From the NCBI GenBank assembly GCA_037043015.1, contig CM073323.1:5456001-5520000 (forward strand): a stretch of 64,000 nucleotides of DNA. The letters run 5' to 3'. The notes beneath the pieces were generated by a model. The model was not told the origin of the DNA and searched no databases. It worked only from the letters and a program-made list of their open reading frames with translations. This stretch comes from Bryum argenteum. Taxonomy: Eukaryota; Streptophyta; Bryopsida; Bryales; Bryaceae. The translations under genes were made by a program, and so were the position numbers. Shown one piece after another: positions 293-51,403 of this stretch (the first letter of the stretch is position 1; each line of letters begins with the position of its first letter).

Positions 293-759
293 GTGAAGGT
301 GAAGCAGAAGTGAAGACGATTGAAAACAGTTGCGGGGTAAAATTGATCGTTAAATAGAGCGACCGAGGTGGGGTTGTCGTCCTCGTCGACGTCGTCGTCG
401 TCGGTCGTCGCGGGCGCGTTTACCAGCACCAAACAGCGCGACTTCATCTCCATTCATGCTCCCTCCCATCTCGCGTGCTGGCAGCCTGGCTGCTTCATCT
501 TCCTCCATTTCTACCTTACCTGTCTCCGTCCTGCCTTTCTTCTCCTCCTGCTCCTGTTCTCGGACTTTGGCTGCACGTCCCACCGGCACCGCCACTCTCC
601 GAGCATCTCATTCATTGCCCACCCCACTGGCCCATTCATTGCCTATTGGCCCCGTCATGGGATTTCTGCTCCAGGCTTGTTCCATTAGGGTTCGCCAGTT
701 AGGGTTAGGGGTTGAAGCCCGCGGGGGATGGTGAGCAAGAAGCACGACCGCTGCTGCAG
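293..759 (+). promoter_or_regulatory. Upstream region / 5' leader of the MATH gene with telo-box-like motifs
   Basis: The stretch is GC-richer than the spacers and carries a long C/T-rich run at about 487-560, as many plant 5' leaders do. Just before the first ATG, at about 684-712, there are repeated TTAGGGTT motifs, which resemble the plant telo-box (AAACCCTAA on the other strand). No clear TATA box was found. The transcription start is not determined. Confidence 0.4.
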
Positions 760-3700
760 ATGACGACGACGACGAGTGGGTCGAATTTGACCGATGACGG
801 CGCGCCGTCGTCGTCGGACCCAACCACCGCCACAGCAGGCGCAGGCGCCATGGAGAATTCAGGGCGCCAAGACAAGAGCAACAACGGCGTCGCGCGCGGG
901 TGCGGAGAGACGAATGCCGATGGCGAGCCTCGTGAGGGCGGCCAGGAGTCCGTGATTGTGGAGAAGCGGGGCGACCACGCCGCGGTCTGCAAGTGGACCA
1001 TCAGCCAGTTCGCCAAGGTCAAGGCCCGCGCGCTTTGGAGCCGGTATTTTGAGGTAGGCGGGTACGACTGCCGCTTGCTGGTGTACCCCCGCGGGGACTC
1101 CCAAGCATTGCCTGGCTATTTGAGTATCTACCTGCAGGTCACGGATCCGCGCGGATCTTCCTCATCCAAGTGGGATTGCTTCGCCAGCTATAGGTTGTGT
1201 GTCGTGAATCAACGAGATGAGACGAAATCAATACAGCGAGACTCGTGGCATCGATTCTCTGGAAAGAAGAAGTCACACGGTTGGTGTGATTTTACCCCGA
1301 GTTCCACGGTGTTGGACACCAAGGGAGGGTTCGTTGTCAATGAGGGCGTGCTGATTACCGCGGAGATTTTAGTTCTTAATGAATCGGTATCGTTTTCTAG
1401 GGAAAATGAGCTGCCTGCAACGGGCGGGCCTGTCCCTGAAGTTTTGAGTGGAAAATTCACCTGGAAAGTGCACAATCTTTCGCTCTTCAAGGAGATGATC
1501 AAAACGCAGAAAATCATGAGCCCAGTGTTTCCAGCTGGGGATTGTAGTTTGAGATTAAGTGTGTATCAGTCGTCGGTTAGCGGTGTAGATTATTTATCCA
1601 TGTGTTTGGAGAGTAAGGATACGGAGAAATCGAGTGTCCCGGAGCGGAGTTGCTGGTGCTTGTTTCGAATGTCCGTGTTGAATCAGCGGGTGGGGATGAA
1701 TCACATGCACCGAGACTCGTATGGTCGATTTGCTGCCGACAACAAGAGCGGTGATAACACTAGCCTCGGATGGAATGATTATATGAAGATGGCTGATTTT
1801 GTGGCTCCCGAGATGGGCTACTTGGTCGAGGACACGGCTGTGTTTAGTGCCTCGTTTCATGTCATCAAGGAATCGAGCACATTTTCGAAGAATATAGGGC
1901 CGTTGAGTGCACGGGCTAATGCAAAGAAGAGTGACGGGTATCAGGGCAAATTCATGTGGCGGATAGAAAATTTTACCCGTCTCAAGGACCTTCTGAAGAA
2001 GAGGAAGATCACTGGGCTTTGCATTAAGAGTCGCAGATTTCAAGTTGGTAATCGAGATTGTCGCCTCATCGTGTATCCACGAGGTATGAAACGCAACCGT
2101 ATCATCGACAATCAGTGCACGGAATCAATGCAGGCTTACATATGTTGCTGGAGTCAAAATTTGATCTCCTTACGTTAGTTTAGTCTACAGACATTAAACT
2201 GGTGGGCTTAAGACCGCGCTCCAGTTCAAGTCAATCGGTTCTGTTTCCTAGTTGACGATCGGTTCTGTGGGTGATGGCTTTACAGGACAGTCACAACCTC
2301 CATGCCACTTGTCGATGTTTCTCGAAGTGACGGATCCTCGCAACACTTCTGCCGATTGGAGCTGCTTTGTGAGTCATCGATTGTCTGTTGTGAATCAACG
2401 CACTGATGAAAGATCTGTCACAAAGGAATCACAAAATCGGTATTCAAAGGCTGCGAAAGATTGGGGGTGGCGGGAGTTTGTCACCTTGACTAGCCTGTTT
2501 GACCAAGATTCGGGATTCCTCGTACAAGACATGGTTGTCTTCTCTGCAGAAGTGTTGATTCTGAAGGAGACCTCGACAATGTTGGAGCTTCCGGAGTACG
2601 AGGCTGAGACACCTGCTGCAACAGGAGGTTCTGACACGGGTAGAATTGTCAACCGCGGAACCTTTACGTGGCGAGTCGAAAATTTTCTGGCTTTCAAGGA
2701 GATTATGGAAACTCGGAAGATCTTTAGCAAATTCTTTCAGGCAGGAGGGTGTGAGTTACGCATAGGTAAGCTATTACGACTATCCTATCAATCGATCGAT
2801 CAGTATTTTCAACGATTAATGTATCATGTCACCATTTCTGAATTAGGTTCCAGATTTTAAGAACCAGCCATCGGGAGGTGCCCACGACGCTCGCGTCTTG
2901 GATCTTGTCGCTTGGGGACAATTATAATAATCAAATAATTTGGGTCCGACTCTGCACAGTAGAAGAATGCATTTGACGACGATGGTCTCGCATGCATCAG
3001 ACCAACAATGAGCGATTCAGTTATATTACTCTGGCAATTTTTCGGGTGCCGCCGTCTCTTACATTCGCGGTGGACCTTTCTGTCTTTCTGATGTTATGCT
3101 GCCCCTTGTTGCAGGTGTATATGAGTCTTTTGATACGCTCTGTATATATCTAGAAAGTGACCAGTCTACAGGATCGGATCCAGATCGAAACTTTTGGGTG
3201 AGATATCGCATGGCAGTTGTGAATCAGAAGCACGCAGATCGTACAGTCTGGAAGGAATCTTCTATCTGCACCAAGACTTGGAATAATTCAGTTCTGCAGT
3301 TCATGAAAGTCTCGGACATGGTTGAAGCCGATGCAGGCTTTTTGGTGCGAGATACTGTCGTGTTTGTCTGTGAGATACTGGACTGCTGTCCGTGGTTCGA
3401 GTTTTCCGACCTTGAGGTAACTAGCCACTGCACAGAGCATGTCTTGTATTGCACCTGATTGCAACTCGCCTGTTAGGATTTAGTGAGCCGATAGCTTTCA
3501 TACGTTGTTTGAAATTGGTCACCTGGAATATTAAGATGCTTGATTGCGTGCAGGTGCTGATATCTGATGATGAACAGGATGTGCTTTCCACTGATCCAGA
3601 TGATATCTTGGATTCTGACGACAGTGAAGGCATTAGTGGTGATGAGGAAGACATTTTTCGGAGCCTGCTGGCACGGGCTGGGTTCCACTTGAGCTACGGG

Positions 3701-13398: not shown

Positions 13399-15826
13399 AT
13401 GCAAGACAAGCACATCTTGCGTTGGTCGAGTGAGGAGGAAAAGCATGAGGAAGCTGTCACTAGTATGAACGATTTGCAGAATGGTGATCCTGAGAGTAAA
13501 CCGGCCTACTGGCCTGGAGGCTGGAAGACATCACCTTACATTCTTGGTACGTCTCTCGATCAGAGAATCCTGACCTCTTCAACAAGAATCAAGTCGTTTG
13601 TATGTGTGAGTGATGTGTGCATGGTGTCATTTTGGAGGTTCGAGTGTACTCCATTCTCTGAGCGTGGTGTTTCATGCACAGGGAACCATTTCCTGACAAC
13701 AATAGCGTATTACGGAGTGGCAACAAACTTAGTACTCTACCTCACGCAGGTTCTGCATGAAGGGAATTCCGCTGCCGCAGCGAATTATAGTAACTGGCTG
13801 GGGACGTCGTACCTTACGTCGCTAATCGGAGCGTTTCTGGGTGACGCGTACTGGGGTCGTTACTGGACTGCCATCGTCTTCTCCACCATCAACCTCTTCG
13901 TAAGCTCATGATAGTGTGTTCTTCTGATTTCCCGCACTCTAGCTGCGAGCCAGTGTGGCTAATCACTGCAATGCACTGGGTCGCAGGGAATGGTAGTTCT
14001 CACTCTGTCTGTGACAATTCCATATTTGCGGCCTGCACCATGCGCATCGGACTCGCGATGCCCGAAACCGAATATTGCGCAAACGGGCGTGTTCTACTTC
14101 GCACTGTACGCGGTGGCGCTCGGCGCCGGTGGGTTCCAGCCATGTCTGTCCGCGCTCGGAGCCGACCAGTTCGACGAGCGGGACACCAAGGAGAGCAAGC
14201 ACCAGAAGATCTTTTTTAGCGTCTACTACCTCTGTCTGTGCGCCGGCGCGCTCATTGCCGGCAGCGTGTTGGTCTACATTGAAGCCAATGTGGGCTGGGA
14301 CTGGGGCTTCGGAATCTCCCTCGCCGCTTTGGGCGTCGGCACTCTGGTGCTTATGCTCGGAAATCGGCTGTACCGGGTCAACCCTCCTGCTGGCAACCCG
14401 CTTGCTCGCATTGCGCAGGTGATCGTCGCCGCTGTTAGGAAATGGCAGCTCGTGGCGCCGCGAGACGACTCGTTGCTGTATGAGGTCGAAGACCGCTCGG
14501 CTATTCACGGCAGCCGCAAAATCAAACGCAGCCATGAATTCATGTACACCTTACACCCCCCTCGTTGTATACTTGAATTGTCGTCGTCCCTGGGTATTGC
14601 GGTAAACCCTGAACCCCAGTCGCCAATGCAATTTTTGCGTAATTTCGGCGACCTTTGATGCAGTGCAGGTTTTTGGACAAAGCGGCAATTGCGAGTGAAG
14701 AGGAGAGGCAGGGTGACCCGGGGAGCTATAGTCCGTGGAGGCTGGTGACGGTGACGCAAGTGGAGGAAGTGAAGTTTCTGTTGCGGATTCTGCCCGTGTG
14801 GCTCTGCAGCATCATCTTCTCCGCCATCTACACGCAGATGCTCACGCTTTTCATCGTGCAGGGCGCCACAATGGACACGCGCGTGGGAAGTAAGCACATT
14901 CCGCCGGCGTCCATTTCACTGTTCGACTTCATCAGTGTCCTCTGCTGGGCGCCGATCTACGAGTGGGTGTTAGTGCCGCTGGCGCGCCGCTACTCGGGCA
15001 ACGAACGTGGTTTCACGGGGCTGCAGCGCATGGGAATCGGCCTCGCGGTCATCACCGTCGCCATGATCGCTGCCGCCATTGTTGAGATTGAGCGCCTCAA
15101 ATTGGCGCGGATTCATGACCTCCTCGACTCGCCCGGCGTCCCCGTCCCCATGAGCATCTTCTGGTGCACCTTCACACCTCTCCACAATTCAACTAGTCAT
15201 CGCACTCGTAAGACCAAGGATCCATAAGGTGATCAATTGAACTGATGGACATAATCCAAATGGGCCAATTTTTGCAACACCAAGTCTGTTCATCAGATAA
15301 ATTGAACTGATGAAGTCTCAGAATCTCTAGAATCTAATTGGGCTCTTTGTGCAGGCAAGTGCCGCAGTACTCGCTGGTGGGAGCTTCGGAGGTGTTCACG
15401 TACATCGGGCAGCTGGAGTTTTTCTACGAGCAGAGCCCGGACGGAATCCGTGGGCTCGGAAGCGCGCTGGCACTCACAACGTTCGGGCTCGGCAACTACC
15501 TGAGCTCGATAATCGTTACAGCTGTGACGAACATCACGAGCTCGGGGGGACGCACCGGATGGATCCCAGCCAAGAACCTCAATCGAGGTCACTTGGACTA
15601 TTTCTACTGGCTTGTCGCGGGAATCAGCGCGCTGAACCTCGTCCTCTACATCAAATGCGCGCAGTGGTACCGCATCACGAGCACCCAGTTGACCATCCCC
15701 AGCGGCACTTGCATGAGCCCCACGGGGTGCATCGAACACAAATCCTTTTCACGCCATTCAGAGCCCTACCATCACGTCGAATGCGGCCATGAACACTGTA
15801 ACGACAGTGCAGATCATGTTGGATGA
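13399..15826 (+). CDS. NPF (NRT1/PTR family) transporter, 629 aa, five exons
   Basis: Exons read at 13399-13546, 13682-13899, 13987-14543, 14669-15163 and 15355-15826, all GT/AG, with phases joining to 630 codons including stop. NPF proteins are 12-helix plasma-membrane or vacuolar carriers for nitrate, peptides or hormones, usually proton-coupled. Family signatures are clear: WPGGWKTSPYILGN at the start, AYYGVATNL in helix 1, NW.GT.YL..L.GAF..DAYWGRYWT, a large hydrophilic loop in the middle, QRMGIGL, and VPQYSLVGASEVFTYIGQLEFFY near the C terminus. The helix-1 motif normally written ExxER/K (NEFCER) reads NHFLTT here, so the residues tied to proton coupling are absent. The substrate cannot be told from sequence. 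The alternative is a recently inactivated gene, but the frame is otherwise whole. Confidence 0.9.
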
Positions 15827-16256
15827 ATTTTTTACTCAAACACCTCTTAGTTGTATCTTTGGCCTTGAAAGCTTAATGAAAAATTACATAACGAGATTCA
15901 CCTCGCCATGTCCCACCACCAATGCGGTCGCAATCCACCGGCCCTGCAGATCATGTTGGCTGATTAACCGGCATTCATATCTCGGAATTGACGACTTCAA
16001 TGAAACTCATCACCATATTCATTCACGAGCACGAACCTTTTCTGCAGTAAAGTCCAAATTTCTGACGATAGGAGAGTGCCGATTGTCATGTAGTTTTGTG
16101 GTGGTACGTCTTTGCATGGATTGAATTATCTGGAACGGCGTCAGTTCGAGAAAAATACCTATCAACAGCCTTCACTGAGTTGATGATCCACGACCGCGCG
16201 CGTGTTGCGAGCGTCGCGCTTCTAGACTTGACAGTGGGGAGGGGAATTGGTGAGCT
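15827..16256. other. Spacer between NPF and RibB genes
   Basis: It contains the NPF 3' flank and the short, GC-rich upstream region of the RibB gene from about 16190. No mobile element was seen. The RibB promoter elements are not obvious. Confidence 0.4.
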
Positions 16257-16985
16257 ATGGGGGAAGTAGAAGCGGTGCCGGAATGGAGTGCGGCCCTGGA
16301 GGCCTTGCGAGACGGCAAGTGTGTGGCGGTGCTGGACGGCGAGGATCGCGAGGGCGAGACAGACCTCTTCTTCCCAGCGGCCTCGCTATCCCCCACCTCC
16401 CTGCGCTTCCTGCGCACGCAAGCGGGCGGGGAGCTTTACATTTCAGTCGGACACGAAGTCGCGAGTGCATTCGGGCTCCCTTTCATTGGGGAGGTTCTGG
16501 CGAAGCCTCTGGTTACTGACTCCTTCCCCGTCTTCCAGCATATGGGCAAGGCGCGTGGAGAGATGTGCCAGGGGAGCTGCTCCGTGGGTCTGTCGTTGGA
16601 CCACCGCACGACGAAAACGGGCGCGCCCGACGTCGAGCGCAGCTTCACGTGCCGTAGGTTGGCGGAGCTCTATCAGGAAGTTGCGACTGGAGTCTCTCAA
16701 AACGACGCTGCGAAGCGTCTCGGCGAGGAGTTTCACACACCGGGTCACATTTTCTTGTGCGTGGAGAATCCTTCGGGGCTGCGAACGCGCACTGGTCACA
16801 CGGAACTCTCCATCGCGCTCGCGAAAGCGGCCAATGTCACGCCCGTCATGGTGGGCTGCGTCATGCTCAGCAATGATGGAGACGATTTCGGCGCGCTCAA
16901 ACCTGATGCTGCTAGAGCCTGGGCGGCTCGTCACGACGTGCCCTTCATCACGGGCGCTGCCATCACCAAAGCACTCAGCTTGTAG
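16257..16985 (+). CDS. ribB-like: Monofunctional 3,4-dihydroxy-2-butanone 4-phosphate synthase (RibB type), intronless
   Basis: This 242-residue protein would convert ribulose 5-phosphate into 3,4-dihydroxy-2-butanone 4-phosphate plus formate, the four-carbon precursor of riboflavin. The Mg-binding acidic loop DGEDREGETD is at residues 27-36, TPGHI with its conserved His at 161-165, and GHTELSIALAKAA with the second metal-site Glu at 180-192. All key residues are kept and the length fits a stand-alone RibB domain. There is no N-terminal extension for plastid import and no GTP cyclohydrolase II half, unlike plant RIBA. The stretch from VGLSLDHRTTKTGAPD through RSFT and the 'REGETDL' loop read more like archaeal RibB than plant or E. 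coli versions. The gene is a single exon and GC-rich, while its neighbours are split. Horizontal acquisition is an inference. Confidence 0.88.
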   Translation: MGEVEAVPEWSAALEALRDGKCVAVLDGEDREGETDLFFPAASLSPTSLRFLRTQAGGELYISVGHEVASAFGLPFIGEVLAKPLVTDSFPVFQHMGKARGEMCQGSCSVGLSLDHRTTKTGAPDVERSFTCRRLAELYQEVATGVSQNDAAKRLGEEFHTPGHIFLCVENPSGLRTRTGHTELSIALAKAANVTPVMVGCVMLSNDGDDFGALKPDAARAWAARHDVPFITGAAITKALSL

Positions 16986-17604
16986 CACAATGCAGTAATT
17001 CTCATCTTTTGGGCTGCCAATTTCTGTGCACATTCTTCTGGTTTCAGCGGCTGCCAGTGCATGTTCGTAGAACTGATGAGTCGGCCATTTGGTCCTGGAA
17101 ACGAGCGGTAGGGTGAATGCCTGCTCCGCTTTGCCGCATACCAGCTTCCGAGCTTGGATTGCAAGAGTGATCGATGTCGCTATTGCAGAGTGAGATGGCC
17201 ATGGCCTGAGATCAGTTCGAGAACGGGGAGCGCTTGTATATCTCTCTATTGAGTTAATTCATTTGATATCGACCTGCCAATTGGTGGCATGCTCGAATTG
17301 TGCAATTCCTCTCTTGCTAAAAGAATATTGGTTGTCAACTTGGTGCTCTAATTCTCATTACATTAATTGATTGTCAGCAAATTACAGAAACTTGACCTTA
17401 TTGTTTACATACAACGCACCATTAGGGGACGAAGAAATTGTATCAGGCTTTGTTTATTTTGTCAAATTATTAATGAGCCAGGGTCCCTTTACACTATGGA
17501 CCATGAAGATTGACCATAGCCTTCTAAAACTTGTGATTGGAGAGTGAAGTGCTCTTGGTCCCATTTGGCTTTACACTACCTTGATTATAGTTTAGTCAAA
17601 GCAG
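16986..17604. other. Spacer after RibB gene
   Basis: A modestly GC-rich 3' flank fades into AT-rich sequence by 17.25 kb. No gene or repeat was recognised. Confidence 0.4.
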
Positions 17605-18609: not shown

Positions 18610-18691
18610 GTCGCTTTGGCCGAGTGGTTAAGGCGTGTGCCTGCTAAGTACATGGGGTTTCCCCGCAAGAGTTCGAATCTCTTAGGCGACG
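18610..18691 (+). tRNA. tRNA-Ser (anticodon GCU), 82 nt, no intron
   Basis: The acceptor arms GTCGCTT / AGGCGAC pair fully, with one G-T, and the discriminator is G. The D arm is GGCCGAGTGGTTAAGGC (A box). The anticodon stem TGTGC/GTACA encloses the loop CTGCTAA, giving anticodon GCT. A long variable arm (class II, as expected for Ser) is followed by the T arm AAGAG-TTCGAAT-CTCTT (B box). A T-run at 18720-18726 can end RNA polymerase III transcription. The nuclear cytosolic type fits its nuclear surroundings. Confidence 0.95.
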
Positions 18692-19262: not shown

Positions 19263-19357
19263 GGTCACTTTGAACGAATCGTTTATCCTGTGTGAATGTG
19301 CGTCAATTCAATTCTACGAGTCTGCGACTGTTTCTACAGAAAGCTGACATGCATCTC

Positions 19358-19468
19358 CTTTGAATTGTTGTATTCTTTCGAATTGTTGTATTCTTTCGAA
19401 TTGTTGTATTCTTTCGAATTGTTGTATTCTTTCGAATTGTTGTATTCTTTCGAATTGTTGTGTTTCTT
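19358..19468 (+). repeat. 18-bp tandem repeat, about six units
   Basis: The unit TCGAATTGTTGTATTCTT is repeated nearly perfectly. Because 18 is a multiple of three, it gives an open frame reading FELLYS repeatedly. The frame is short and has no other gene signal. Confidence 0.9.
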
Positions 19469-20294
19469 TTGGGATTCAGAGTTTCACGCTTAAATTTTTT
19501 ACGGGCTTGTTGGTTGTTGCGTTGTGATGAACGATACCTTGAATCTAAAGTGTTGCAGGTGGGGTGCATCACTAATTGTCATTGGGTTTGCAAATAGAAT
19601 GTAAGAGGTAAATGGGAATACTATATGTCATGCAACACTATATCTGATTATTAGTGTAGTGCATATTCCACATAAGATATGAAAAATGCATTTTGGTAAA
19701 CTTCTCTTTTTATAAACTTTTGGTTGTTCCAATGTTGGGTGTATTCGGAGCGAAACAAACAAGGACAATCTTTATTATTGTATACATGCCTCATTTAACT
19801 AAATCCGAATTCATTTGAGAAAACTAGACTAGAAGAGATTTTGGACTTTTCAATTTGTGCGACGGTAATTATTTTAATGATTACCTTTTAGTATCTTCAT
19901 ATTCTTATGCAATCCCCAAATTGAATATTTAATGTGGTTCACTTTTCTTTCACAAAGCTATGGGGGAGCCCACGTTGTGTTACTTCTAAATTGCTGTTAG
20001 TCTAGAAGTAGTTAAGGGTGGCATATTTATATTCAAATGGAGTGATTAAACTTGTGCTAATTTTGGAACATATAGTCGTGAAAAAACGTCATGAAAGTGA
20101 CTATATATCATAAAAACAAGGATCACTTTACAAAACTCATATTTTATAAAAAAAGCTATTTTGCTCTACATATTCTCAAAATCAAAGGGGTTCTTATATG
20201 TGGGCCAATGCATGGGAAGTAGCATAGTTGTCACACAAGAATGAGATAAGAATCGCACCATTTTGTCATGGCCTTTAGTCATAGACATTCAAAA
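19469..20294. other. AT-rich spacer
   Basis: I see no coding, structural or repeat signal that can be named here. Confidence 0.4.
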
Positions 20295-47329: not shown

Positions 47330-50300
47330 CATGTAAAAACCTCATGATAAACAACATTTTTCACCGTTCTCACGGCTTCATTGTTGTCATTGGCAACCTT
47401 AATGTTTGCAGGATGTCTACCACGAGACAATGCCACATATAATTGACCATGGCTAAATACTTCATTACGAAGATACATGCCGACTTCGATCATATGATTG
47501 GCCCCGCGATTTGTTAATTGTCATGGCAAAAGCACCAAAGGAGAAATTGTTTCCGGCAAAGTGTGAATGGCAAGCGGCTATCATTGCAATGATGGGTGAT
47601 TCTAGGAATCAACACCTCTTGGCTACGATAGCGTCCTTCTACAATTTCGCACAACAACACACTGGAAGACACTTGCAAAAGACGCAAAAGCGACTACCAT
47701 TGCACAAACCTTTTGCGGATTCAAGTTCCTTAGCAACATCAAATATTGACCACATTTAAGATCTAATTGGTGAGGAGGCAAACCACTCAATTGTAAAGAA
47801 TTCAAAAACTCTACGGGATAATGATGAGCATGTTCATCATTCTCGTGAACAAAGTCAGCACTAAACCATTGATGCACATCACCGGGTAAACGATCGGTAA
47901 TTTTTCGGTTGATTTCTTGAGCATCATCATTTCGAACAACCAAAATGACACGTTCAGAAAAATCAACCGGATCATCAAAAATAGCATTAATGAGACCATC
48001 TAAAGAATTTCCAGGAGCAACTAATTCGGGCGGTAAATCTACCTTTGGACCGGTTTTGTCTTCACCAATATCTAGCAAAAATCGTTGAAAGTCCGGTTGA
48101 CTTTGCAAACGCATGTTAGTGGTCAGATGAAAATGTTGCATCAGTGGAAATAAATATGAATGTCGCAAGCAAGCCTCAACAGTTTGCTTGCGACCTCCAC
48201 TTACAACTACGGGCAAAGTTTGGCGAAAATCACCACCATATAAAACTACAACACCGCCATTTGGACTGTCTATACCGCGTATATCTCGCAAAGATCTATC
48301 TATAGCTTCATACATAAACGATGTCAAAGACAAAGCTTCATCAAGTACAATCAATTGTACTTGACGTAAGCTTTGACCTAATGTAGATTGGGCACTAATG
48401 TTGCAAATTGATGCATCGTGCAACTGTAAAGGAATAGCAAGAGATGAATGTGCCGTTCGCCCTTCATTCAAAAGGCATGCGGCAATTCCACTTGTTGCCA
48501 TTGCCATACACTTGACATTACGACCACGAAGATAACCTAATATGGTGTTATACAAAAAAGTCTTACCTGTACCACCAGGACCATCTAAAAAGAAAAGCCT
48601 ATTTGAAGAATCAAAATTTAAAACAGCAGAGGTCACTGCATTAAAAACAATGTTTTGTTGTTGAGTCTACCTACATCCTCTTCTAGAAAAGTAATGTTTT
48701 GGTTATCAAAATCAATATTGTCATTGGTATCACTACCAACATCAACAATGTTTGGATAACCAAACTCATTCAATTCTTCGATATTAAAAAAATCTGTAAG
48801 ATGTTTATCTGATGATGACAAATATTCTTCAATGGACAAAATCGCTTTGCAATAGCGATTTTGATCATTGCGCCAATCATTAGACATAGCATCAAGATGA
48901 CTCCTTAATAAACTAAGAGGATCTAGTGGTTGTCCAAACACAAGAAGTGTTGCAAACAACCGCCGAATTTGCTTAGGCAACGCAATGAGAGTTGCCTCTT
49001 GTAGACAATTTTCCCACTCAATATCATCATGTAAAAGTCCTCTTGCAATAAAAGCGGCTTTGTACGTTAAATGCACAATACCATTAAAACAAAGTAGGTC
49101 ATCAAATGAAGTTGGTGCCTCAACATGAGTCAACAACAAACGTAAGTAAAATACTTCGGTACCCATGGGAACCATATTTATCCTACCAAAAACTTTAATA
49201 TTACGTAGTCTTCTTTTTCCCCATGTTTTTCTTCACATCCCACTTGTAATGGAGTGGAAGATCCATGTAACGAAGAAGCATATGATTGCCTTGATTGCGG
49301 AAGCAATCAAGGCACGAATGTGGCGATTGAGCTCAAAAACTTAGTGAGTTTAGTCTCGGCATTTTGATCAATCACCGTTTGCAAAGATGTTGCCTCCTCA
49401 AAAGTAACATATTGTTGACCAGGAAGGTGAACGGGTAAACGACAAATACTATGACTCTTATTGTTAGTTTCAAAACCAAAAAGTCTCAACATGCTTCTTG
49501 GGCGGCCACATAACGACCTTCCAAGAAATCTTTAATCTCATCTACAACTTCATCTGTTTCTACAATACCACGATCCGGACCTTTAAAAATATACTTGTGG
49601 AGGTATTTGATTGTTTTTACCGAACTACAAATTTCCACATTAATGTGACAATTAAATCGACCTATCAAATATGGATTGTATGGTACAACCCATCGATTGT
49701 CTAAGCGAACGATTTGTCCATGTACACGTTTCTCGACATATCGACCTTGGTTTCGACGACGGTATAAAACATGACCATCACCATCTATCTCGGAGTATCT
49801 CGAACTTGCATAGGATAGTTTTTGTACATCTACTATTGTCTTCCATGCATGGACAATTGGGATTGTCCAAACCACAAGGTCCATGCATCATATGTTTGGC
49901 AAATCATGGCATACAATTGAGGTTGTCTATCTAAATCGAGAATCTCAAAGACATACTATTCTATCTATAAGGTGACAGTCATTGACCTTGTCTTTTAACC
50001 AAAGAAGAATGTGTGCATGAGGAAGACGACGTTTTGAAACTCAATAGTGTAACAAAAAGCAATTGTCTCTCCCATGACATTCTTCTTGGTAATCTCATCC
50101 ATCAAAGTTTTTAATTTAAGTTCAAAAACACACGTACAACAACATCCGGACGATCCGGAGGACTTTGACCTGGTTCAAGCTCATTAAGAATATCGGGGCA
50201 GTCGGATTACACGTCATTGTCACAAACAAATCGGGTTTTCCTAAAACTCTAACCAAAACCATACTATCATGAAAAAGTTTTTGCATGTATCGAGGGGAGC

Positions 50301-51375
50301 CAATAAATGTTGCGGGTAAGACAATGCGGCGCCCAATGCGTGCTCTATTGTCCTCCCGCAAAGCATCTACAATCCCCGATAACATTCTCGCACGAAGTTC
50401 ATTTTGATGTTGTCTAATGAATAACAAATTTTCATGTTCTACACGTAAATATTGATCTACCACATATTGCTGGAATAATCTACCAGCCCTATGTAGTACA
50501 TTAGATTCCGGCCGCTTTTGAAGCAAATATTGGACATATGACTTTAAAGTCACTCCAGTATTTGCTTTAAAAGTCGGTGACCATCCACATTGTCCCTCAG
50601 GAAATAACAAAGGATAGGATAAAGCATCGTACGCAGGGTGAATTTCTTTTATTCGTAGTAAATTTCCACCGTGTTGGTGAAGAATAATATCTCTACCTAA
50701 ATTCATGTACTGTTCGTCAAGAACAATAGCAGCAACTTCTGGAACTACTTGGCGATTATATCGACGGGGATGTTCTCCAGAAGGAACTTCACCGGAGATA
50801 CGAAGTCCCATGTTTGATCCCCTTTGAAGAACATCACGCGAAGACTTAAAACCTCGAACTAATGCATTTACGGATTCTAAAACTTCTTGAATGTTATTAA
50901 GAGTATCACGATGAAGATCATCAAAAATCTCCATACGACGATTCGTTTGTAAACCATCATCCAAGAAATAAATTTGTGCAAATTTAGCACCTTGGTCTAA
51001 ATCGGGTTGTAAATTTCCAATGTGGTGGCATAATTCTCCGTTTACACGAAAAGTATATACCCCTCTACCTTCAACTTGGCTAGATTGAAACTTACTTCTC
51101 ATACTCGTAAATGCAAAAGCTTGATTATACTTTCGAATATATTTAATAAACTCTCGAGATTTAGGTGTAGTGCCCATATAAAGCTCATTGAGCATTGGAT
51201 GGACGATTGGGTGATTAACATGTTCATTGGCAATTTTGCCATTGTAACAACAAATGGTATTTTTTTCTTTTTTAAAACGAAATGCCAAACATTTTGGACA
51301 TTGGATGCACATTGATCCAACACTATCAACATTGACATCTAGAAAATTATCAATGGTAGACAAAGCACGTGCCAT
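47330..51375 (-). pseudogene. Helitron RepHel: Rep (HUH/Y2) plus PIF1-like helicase, frameshifted
   Basis: Order on the minus strand: an N-terminal Helitron-like domain (51375-50122) with the Cys pair CIQCPKC and FVTMTCNP; an HUH region near 50.03 kb readable as LPHAH but out of frame with the preceding part; a two-tyrosine motif KYLHKYIFKG (about 49.6 kb); then a SF1B PIF1-type helicase (48636-47340) with Walker A GPGGTGKT, IVLDEA, GGDFRQTLPV and a C-terminal LYVALSRGRHP followed by NVVYHEV. The Rep enzyme nicks and joins DNA ends and the helicase unwinds DNA for rolling-circle transposition. At least three frame breaks plus stops (near 50.1, 49.9, 49.3 and 47.6 kb) make it non-functional as read. 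Confidence 0.85.
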
Positions 51376-51403
51376 TGTCTAAAAAGACAATAAAAAAAAG
51401 TAG

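What the first reader, a model, noticed from the sequence alone, without database searches (positions are those of the whole stretch)
16257..16985. Stand-alone, intronless RibB of archaeal flavour in a plant nuclear context
Plants normally make DHBP synthase as one half of the plastid-imported bifunctional RIBA. This gene encodes only the RibB domain, keeps all metal-site and catalytic residues (DGEDREGETD, TPGHI, GHTE), has no transit peptide, no intron and a GC-rich frame. Its middle section reads closer to archaeal RibB. It could be a horizontally acquired gene supplying a cytosolic branch of riboflavin synthesis or another use of the butanone phosphate.
Basis: partly seen in the sequence, partly recalled or inferred. 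Interest (0 to 1): 0.72.

Follow-up and report, generated by a model that had tools for sequence, protein, structure and literature searches.

The report
Archaeal vitamin-B2 enzyme gene in moss
A moss chromosome carries an uninterrupted gene that looks borrowed long ago from archaea, where it makes a building block of vitamin B2, but the moss version has changed an amino acid that the relatives we compared all keep, so it may now do something else.

Summary
The ORF at 16257-16985 is real: 242 codons, one exon, a whole DHBP-synthase (RibB) domain and nothing else. It lies in a 30.6-Mb contig of a plant, probably moss, assembly that also has an ordinary intron-bearing RIBA elsewhere. The gene is archaeal in type. 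Its best PDB match is the M. jannaschii enzyme (116 bits; other organisms at most 59), and trees place it among Thermoplasmatota, away from bacteria and the moss's RIBA. Topology tests back this only marginally. Its highest scores are to a subset whose genomes mostly carry a rhodopsin, probably Poseidoniia; the exact sister is unresolved. Codon composition is host-like. Metal and phosphate ligands remain, but Val202 replaces a Glu, and Val110 a Phe, present in 126 of 126 rows compared. I recall that Glu as essential. Best reading: an old archaea-to-moss transfer, probably still selected, with DHBP-synthase activity lost or altered. No transcript, read, assay, structure or other plant genome was available.

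The parts
16257..16985 (+). Stand-alone archaeal-type RibB gene, 242 codons plus stop, single exon
   Evidence: ORF; PF00926 E 2e-41; one copy in the genome
16335..16364 (+). Acidic loop DGEDREGETD (residues 27-36) with the first metal and substrate ligands, kept
   Evidence: D27, R31, E32, E34, D36 present in 126 of 126 comparison rows
16566..16571 (+). Cys104-Gln105, replacing Tyr-Asp
   Evidence: Tyr-Asp in 115 of 115 archaeal rows
16584..16586 (+). Val110, replacing Phe
   Evidence: Phe in 126 of 126 rows
16740..16751 (+). PGHI motif (residues 162-165) with ligand His164, kept
   Evidence: P, G, H in 126 of 126 rows
16788..16805 (+). RTGHTE motif (residues 178-183) with R178, H181, T182, E183, kept
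   Evidence: R, G, T, E in 126 of 126 rows; His181 in 109 of 126, Gln in 17 archaeal rows
16860..16862 (+). Val202 (GTC), replacing the Glu that equals Glu185 of M. jannaschii
   Evidence: Glu in 126 of 126 rows; numbering from the alignment
16141..16152 (+). Left copy of a perfect 12-nt direct repeat bracketing the gene (possible insertion footprint, weak)
   Evidence: 0.6% of 5,000 resampled flank pairs
17212..17223 (+). Right copy of the 12-nt direct repeat
13963..15826 (+). Upstream neighbour: NPF/PTR2 transporter exons (context)
   Evidence: PF00854 in three ORFs
18610..18691 (+). Downstream neighbour: tRNA-Ser(GCT) (context)

Best explanation
A moss lineage (or an ancestor of it) took up an archaeal ribB gene from a Thermoplasmatota lineage, probably near Poseidoniia. 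The gene settled in the nuclear genome as a single-exon gene and took on host codon composition. Its protein is inferred to be a cytosolic RibB-fold homodimer that can still hold Mg2+ and ribulose 5-phosphate, because the ligands for both are kept. An active-site Glu (E185 in M. jannaschii; recalled as essential) is now Val, and a Phe that lines the pocket is Val. It therefore probably does not complete the Ru5P to DHBP plus formate reaction at a normal rate; it either runs a shortened or different sugar-phosphate reaction or acts by binding Ru5P. Shown: ORF, domain, archaeal affinity, host context, residue changes. Inferred: donor class, location, kept ligand binding, changed activity.
For: Archaeal best matches: M. 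jannaschii 116 bits against at most 59; best five plasmid records haloarchaeal; 80 of 80 kept contig loci archaeal (with an archaeal-weighted pattern); 79 of 292 Thermoplasmatota genomes at 149-203 bits. Tree supports 100/97 and 99/95. Host-like GC3, plant neighbours and chromosome-size contig. Ligand set kept (11 of 12 mapped positions) with invariant Glu and Phe replaced. Intact ORF at high divergence. Acidic N-terminus. Related archaeal genes sit next to a CTP_transf_like and a Lum_binding gene in L109, so the starting function was riboflavin synthesis.
Against: AU tests are marginal: p 0.044 for joining bacteria and RIBA, p 0.087 for a place outside the Thermoplasmatota set. The query's end branch is long (2.16) and the bootstrap had not settled. 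Identity to any relative found is at most 46%. Bacterial chromosomes and all other eukaryotes could not be searched. Essentiality of the lost Glu is recalled, not found in a paper. No structure, transcript or activity data. The selection argument weakens from p 7e-4 to 8e-3 if two more loop positions, at which the moss protein differs, are added.
Confidence: 0.57

Rival explanations
1. One reading: an active cytosolic DHBP synthase of archaeal origin that gives a second source of DHBP for riboflavin or another product.
For: Whole domain; metal and phosphate ligands kept; Asp to Glu at 127 is the change PMC5228156 reports for S. pneumoniae (passage); related archaeal genes lie beside riboflavin genes.
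Against: Glu and Phe found in 126 of 126 rows are both Val. RIBA is already present. Whether the other riboflavin enzymes are in the cytosol was not examined.
Confidence: 0.2
2. A transferred gene that is decaying: still open, no longer useful.
For: Long branch; changes at family-invariant sites. At 90% identity to the starting sequence a neutral ORF would still be open in 43% of simulations, so recent decay cannot be excluded.
Against: Ligands kept while the rest diverged (p 7e-4 to 8e-3); open frame has probability 0.18 at 80% and 0.03 at 60% identity under neutrality, indels ignored.
Confidence: 0.15
3. The archaeal-like gene reached mosses by another eukaryote, or is an old eukaryotic gene of which only this copy was sampled; archaea may even be the receivers.
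For: No eukaryotic collection could be searched; long branch and unresolved sister.
Against: The archaeal rows keep the YD..S.F motif, Glu and Phe that the moss protein has lost, and the 17-row clade is 100/100 without the query.
Confidence: 0.2
4. Contamination or misassembly.
For: Intronless archaeal-type protein.
Against: 30.6-Mb contig with plant neighbours; GC3 like host genes and unlike three related archaeal genes; at most 46% identity to the archaea found.
Confidence: 0.03
5. A duplicate of the plant's own RIBA that lost its second half and introns.
For: Same domain family.
Against: 26% identity to the moss RIBA domain against 43% to L109; RIBA falls with bacteria in the tree.
Confidence: 0.01

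Closest known systems
RibB of rhodopsin-bearing Thermoplasmatota (loci L109-L123, L125, L126; probably Poseidoniia)
   Same: Whole length, up to 46% identity; shared stretches GHEV..FGLPF, EFRTPGHI, GHTEL, GD..AL
   Different: They keep Glu, Phe and Tyr-Asp and, in L109 and L120, sit with other riboflavin genes
Methanocaldococcus jannaschii RibB (PDB 1pvw, 1pvy)
   Same: Best solved relative, 116 bits over residues 12-236; same metal and phosphate ligands
   Different: Glu185 is Val202 in the moss; the moss protein has a longer segment near residues 140-155
Plant RIBA (bifunctional DHBPS-GCHII)
   Same: Same PF00926 domain; present in this genome on C4
   Different: Fused to GCHII, several exons, bacterial type; 26% identity
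Arabidopsis RIBA2 and RIBA3, which have each lost one of the two activities (PMC3509567, passages)
   Same: Plant riboflavin-pathway proteins with conserved residues replaced
   Different: They arose within the plant RIBA family; this gene is of archaeal type

Membership tests
DHBP_synthase domain family (PF00926) | Score above the curated cut-off over the whole profile | tested here: met
   142.1 bits against 26.4, profile 2-190 of 191
ribB equivalog (TIGR00506) | Score above the curated cut-off | tested here: not met
   141.4 against 177.45; control: 6 of 9 relatives pass, L120, L043 and L016 do not, so the test is weak
Functional DHBP synthase | Metal and phosphate ligands | tested here: met
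   11 of 12 mapped positions identical, the twelfth Asp to Glu; mapping of published numbers by motif spacing is mine
Functional DHBP synthase | Invariant Glu of the C-E-M/L motif (recalled as essential) and the pocket Phe | tested here: not met
   Val202 and Val110 against Glu and Phe in 126 of 126 rows
Functional DHBP synthase | Conversion of Ru5P to DHBP and formate | not testable with these tools
   No assay
Archaeal RibB lineage | Groups with archaeal rows away from bacterial ones | tested here: met
   100/100 split (L016 the one bacterial row on the archaeal side); AU p 0.044
RibB of Thermoplasmatota | Place inside Thermoplasmatota | tested here: inconclusive
   100/97 for query plus 32 of 36 Thermoplasmatota rows, but AU p 0.087 for a place outside
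Plant RIBA | Fused to GCHII and grouping with bacterial-type DHBPS | tested here: not met
   Single domain, tree

The most novel reading that the evidence does not exclude
A gene of planktonic-type Thermoplasmatota was domesticated in mosses and turned from a vitamin-B2 enzyme into a new Ru5P- and Mg-dependent activity or a Ru5P-binding regulator in the plant cytosol, by losing the catalytic Glu while the ligand-binding set stayed under selection.
Probability: 0.3. Interest if true: 0.78.

Novelty: new variant of a known kind. Interest (0 to 1): 0.52.

Why it matters
A passage of PMC7027989 describes gene transfer into a moss and a liverwort as coming from bacteria or fungi; a transfer from archaea with a traceable donor phylum would be unusual. 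If the protein is expressed with the invariant Glu gone, it makes a testable case of how a sugar-phosphate enzyme is reused, at ribulose 5-phosphate, a branch point of plant carbon metabolism. DHBP synthase is also the target of the plant toxin phosphonothrixin (PMC12268802, passages and section 3.4), so a second, altered protein of this family in a plant is of some practical interest.

Tried and rejected
Plant RIBA duplicate: rejected by tree, 26% identity and lack of introns. Bacterial origin: the bacterial plasmid rows listed (35 of the 40 listed of 157 records) score 55-97 bits and the five phage records 53-81, against 138 for the best haloarchaeal record; bacterial chromosomes were not searched apart from PDB chains and whatever the two genome-contig scans reached. 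Virus as vehicle: three viral-contig scans gave one partial match near a contig end (L100, residues 20-125) and otherwise none. Transposon or duplicated cargo: the 1,351-bp stretch matched only itself. Retroposition: a 12-nt direct repeat brackets the gene, but I see no poly(A) tract before the right copy. Resistance to a DHBPS-targeting phosphonate: considered after passages of PMC12268802 and PMC12871164 (there the resistance gene is lumazine synthase); nothing in the window supports it. Naming the moss from genome size failed. Print: the listings showed no paper on an archaeal-type RibB in plants; only the held open-licence library was searched, supplements were not. The role of the lost Glu was sought in passages of PMC5228156 and PMC10366380 and without result. 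One search drew nearly the same genomes as and added nothing.

Full report
What is there. The ORF at 16257-16985 encodes 242 residues and is one complete DHBP synthase domain (PF00926, E 2e-41, 142 bits). An in-frame TGA lies at 16251-16253; the sequence just upstream is purine-rich, which makes a spliced-on leader exon unlikely but not excluded. The protein is acidic (pI 5.3) with a non-transit-like N-terminus and the end KALSL.

Where it is. The window is G000:C3:5456001-5520000 of an assembly of 258.8 Mb in 25 contigs; C3 is 30.6 Mb. Plant identity: the ARF_AD domain matches 15 places, 0 of 14 control genomes, and NPF exons lie next door. A contig C12 carries psaA and psaB. Its psaA is closest to PDB 6l35 (with 7ksq, 7kux, 7xqp) and 8htu at 1642 bits, then 9lut at 1611 and 7wfd at 1573. 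I recall the first group as Physcomitrium patens photosystem I, so the host is probably a moss; no call names it.

The normal pathway is elsewhere. On C4, 21548792-21551354, DHBPS and GCHII pieces occur in several exons: the ordinary RIBA. On C5, 705430-706038, only GCHII pieces match. The window stretch is unique at DNA level.

Where it comes from. M. jannaschii RibB scores 116 and 112 bits (two chain sequences); the other 15 solved sequences score 46-59. Plasmids: 157 of 72,556 records match; the best five are haloarchaeal, 34.5-37.5% identity. Genome contigs: a scan with the query alone found no relative; a scan with an alignment of the query, three haloarchaeal, one Roseovarius and one M. 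jannaschii protein used a single REGETD-like pattern and found 275 relatives, of which the 80 kept all carry archaeal titles. That pattern favours archaeal-type proteins, so it does not measure bacterial ones. In the phylum of L029 (titled Thermoplasmata archaeon), 275 of 292 genomes match; 79 of the 292 score 149-203 bits at 38-46% identity, and the next is at 142.

Which archaea. These 79 genomes are 1.2-2.2 Mb. A microbial rhodopsin (PF01036) is found in 15 of the 20 tested and in 0 of 17 other Thermoplasmatota tested; with L124/G106 moved to where the tree puts it, 15 of 19 against 0 of 18. In L109 the gene is followed by a CTP_transf_like gene (like archaeal RibL, recalled) and a two-domain Lum_binding protein (riboflavin synthase); L120 shows the same order by ORF sequence, not scanned.

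Tree. With 70 rows, hand-picked (68 of 125 relatives), bacterial rows plus moss RIBA split from the rest at 100/100, except L016, a very long Roseovarius plasmid row that fell with haloarchaea. Without L016 the query sits with 32 of the 36 Thermoplasmatota rows at 100/97 (L029, L096, L139 and L140 fall elsewhere) and in a 24-row subset at 99/95; its end branch is 2.16 and the bootstrap had not settled. By path length its nearest rows are other Thermoplasmatota (L135, L137, L136), although its highest identity is to L109. AU tests: with bacteria and RIBA p 0.044; outside the 32 rows p 0.087; as sister of the 17-row clade p 0.379. Archaeal origin is thus well backed by scores and branch supports and only marginally by AU; the exact donor is open.

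Host adaptation. GC3 is 0.72: like NPF (0.72, 0.79) and ARF (0.69), above MATH (0.60) and RIBA exons (0.35-0.59), and far from three related archaeal genes (0.24-0.42). This argues against contamination and suggests a long stay.

Active site. From passages of PMC5228156 (V. cholerae numbers) and section 3.4 of PMC12268802 (Z. tritici numbers) I mapped, by motif spacing, D30, R31, E32, E34, D36, T121, G122, E127, H164, R178, H181 and T182. Eleven of 12 agree; Asp to Glu at 127 is what PMC5228156 reports for S. pneumoniae. Two further positions named there as strictly or mostly conserved (Val-110, Ser-111) are Ala123 and Pro124 here; Ala123 faces Ile or Val in all rows but L016. Against 115 archaeal, 10 bacterial-plus-RIBA and one further row, the moss protein has Val202 for Glu and Val110 for Phe (126 of 126 each) and Cys104-Gln105 for Tyr-Asp (115 of 115 archaeal). 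By the alignment, Val202 equals Glu185 of M. jannaschii; I recall its E. coli equivalent, Glu174, as annotated essential, but found no paper for it. Phe110 equals, by my alignment, the residue that packs on the inhibitor's methyl group in PMC12268802 (Y92 in Z. tritici, F212 in Arabidopsis).

Is it under selection? Keeping at least 11 of 12 ligands at 43% background has p 7e-4; with the two extra loop positions, at least 11 of 14, p 8e-3. Neutral simulation from the present sequence: no stop in 0.43, 0.18 and 0.03 of runs at 90, 80 and 60% identity. These are rough, ignore indels, and part of the divergence lies on the archaeal side, so recent decay is not excluded.

How it most likely works. 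Shown: an archaeal-type RibB gene in a moss. Inferred: a dimer that binds Mg2+ and Ru5P in the usual pocket; without Glu and Phe the rearrangement that ends in DHBP and formate is blocked or diverted; the protein acts in the cytosol. An active DHBP synthase stays at 0.2.

Insertion. A perfect 12-nt direct repeat at 16141-16152 and 17212-17223 brackets the gene, 1,059 bp apart; such a match between flanks 16000-16256 and 16986-17300 arose in 0.6% of 5,000 resamplings. The flank ranges were chosen after the repeat was seen, and there is no poly(A).

Verdict.

Noticed in passing
L038, L041, L044, L047, L048, L053, L059, L062, L065, L068, L073, L078, L082, L083, L087, L094, L097: In 17 of 115 archaeal RibB rows, including those titled Methanoperedens, Methanophagales, Alkanophagales and Methanosarcinales, the metal-binding His of GHTE is Gln (GQTE).
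   Followed up: partly
G000:C5:705430-706038 (L019): A second locus matches GTP cyclohydrolase II exons only, with no DHBPS match on that contig: a partial RIBA copy or a GCHII-only gene.
   Followed up: no
L016:992-1654: Roseovarius plasmid stand-alone RibB, very divergent (end branch 3.68), falls on the archaeal side of the tree and lies between an alpha/beta hydrolase and an aminotransferase gene.
   Followed up: partly
window 47623-51378, minus strand: Helitron-type pieces: PIF1-like helicase and Helitron_like_N domains in separate ORFs.
   Followed up: no
window 709-2860: Several MATH domains in adjoining ORFs.
   Followed up: no
window 19296-19493: Short tandem repeat that reads FELLYS several times in one frame.
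   Followed up: no
G000:C5:8161886-8412977, 14730833-14760859 and C2:25064562-25094660: Large clustered arrays of weak Chloroa_b-bind matches, possibly early light-induced proteins (name recalled).
   Followed up: no
L100:4001-4315: Part of a RibB relative (38% identity, residues 20-125) near the end of an IMG/VR contig; may be a misfiled archaeal piece.
   Followed up: no
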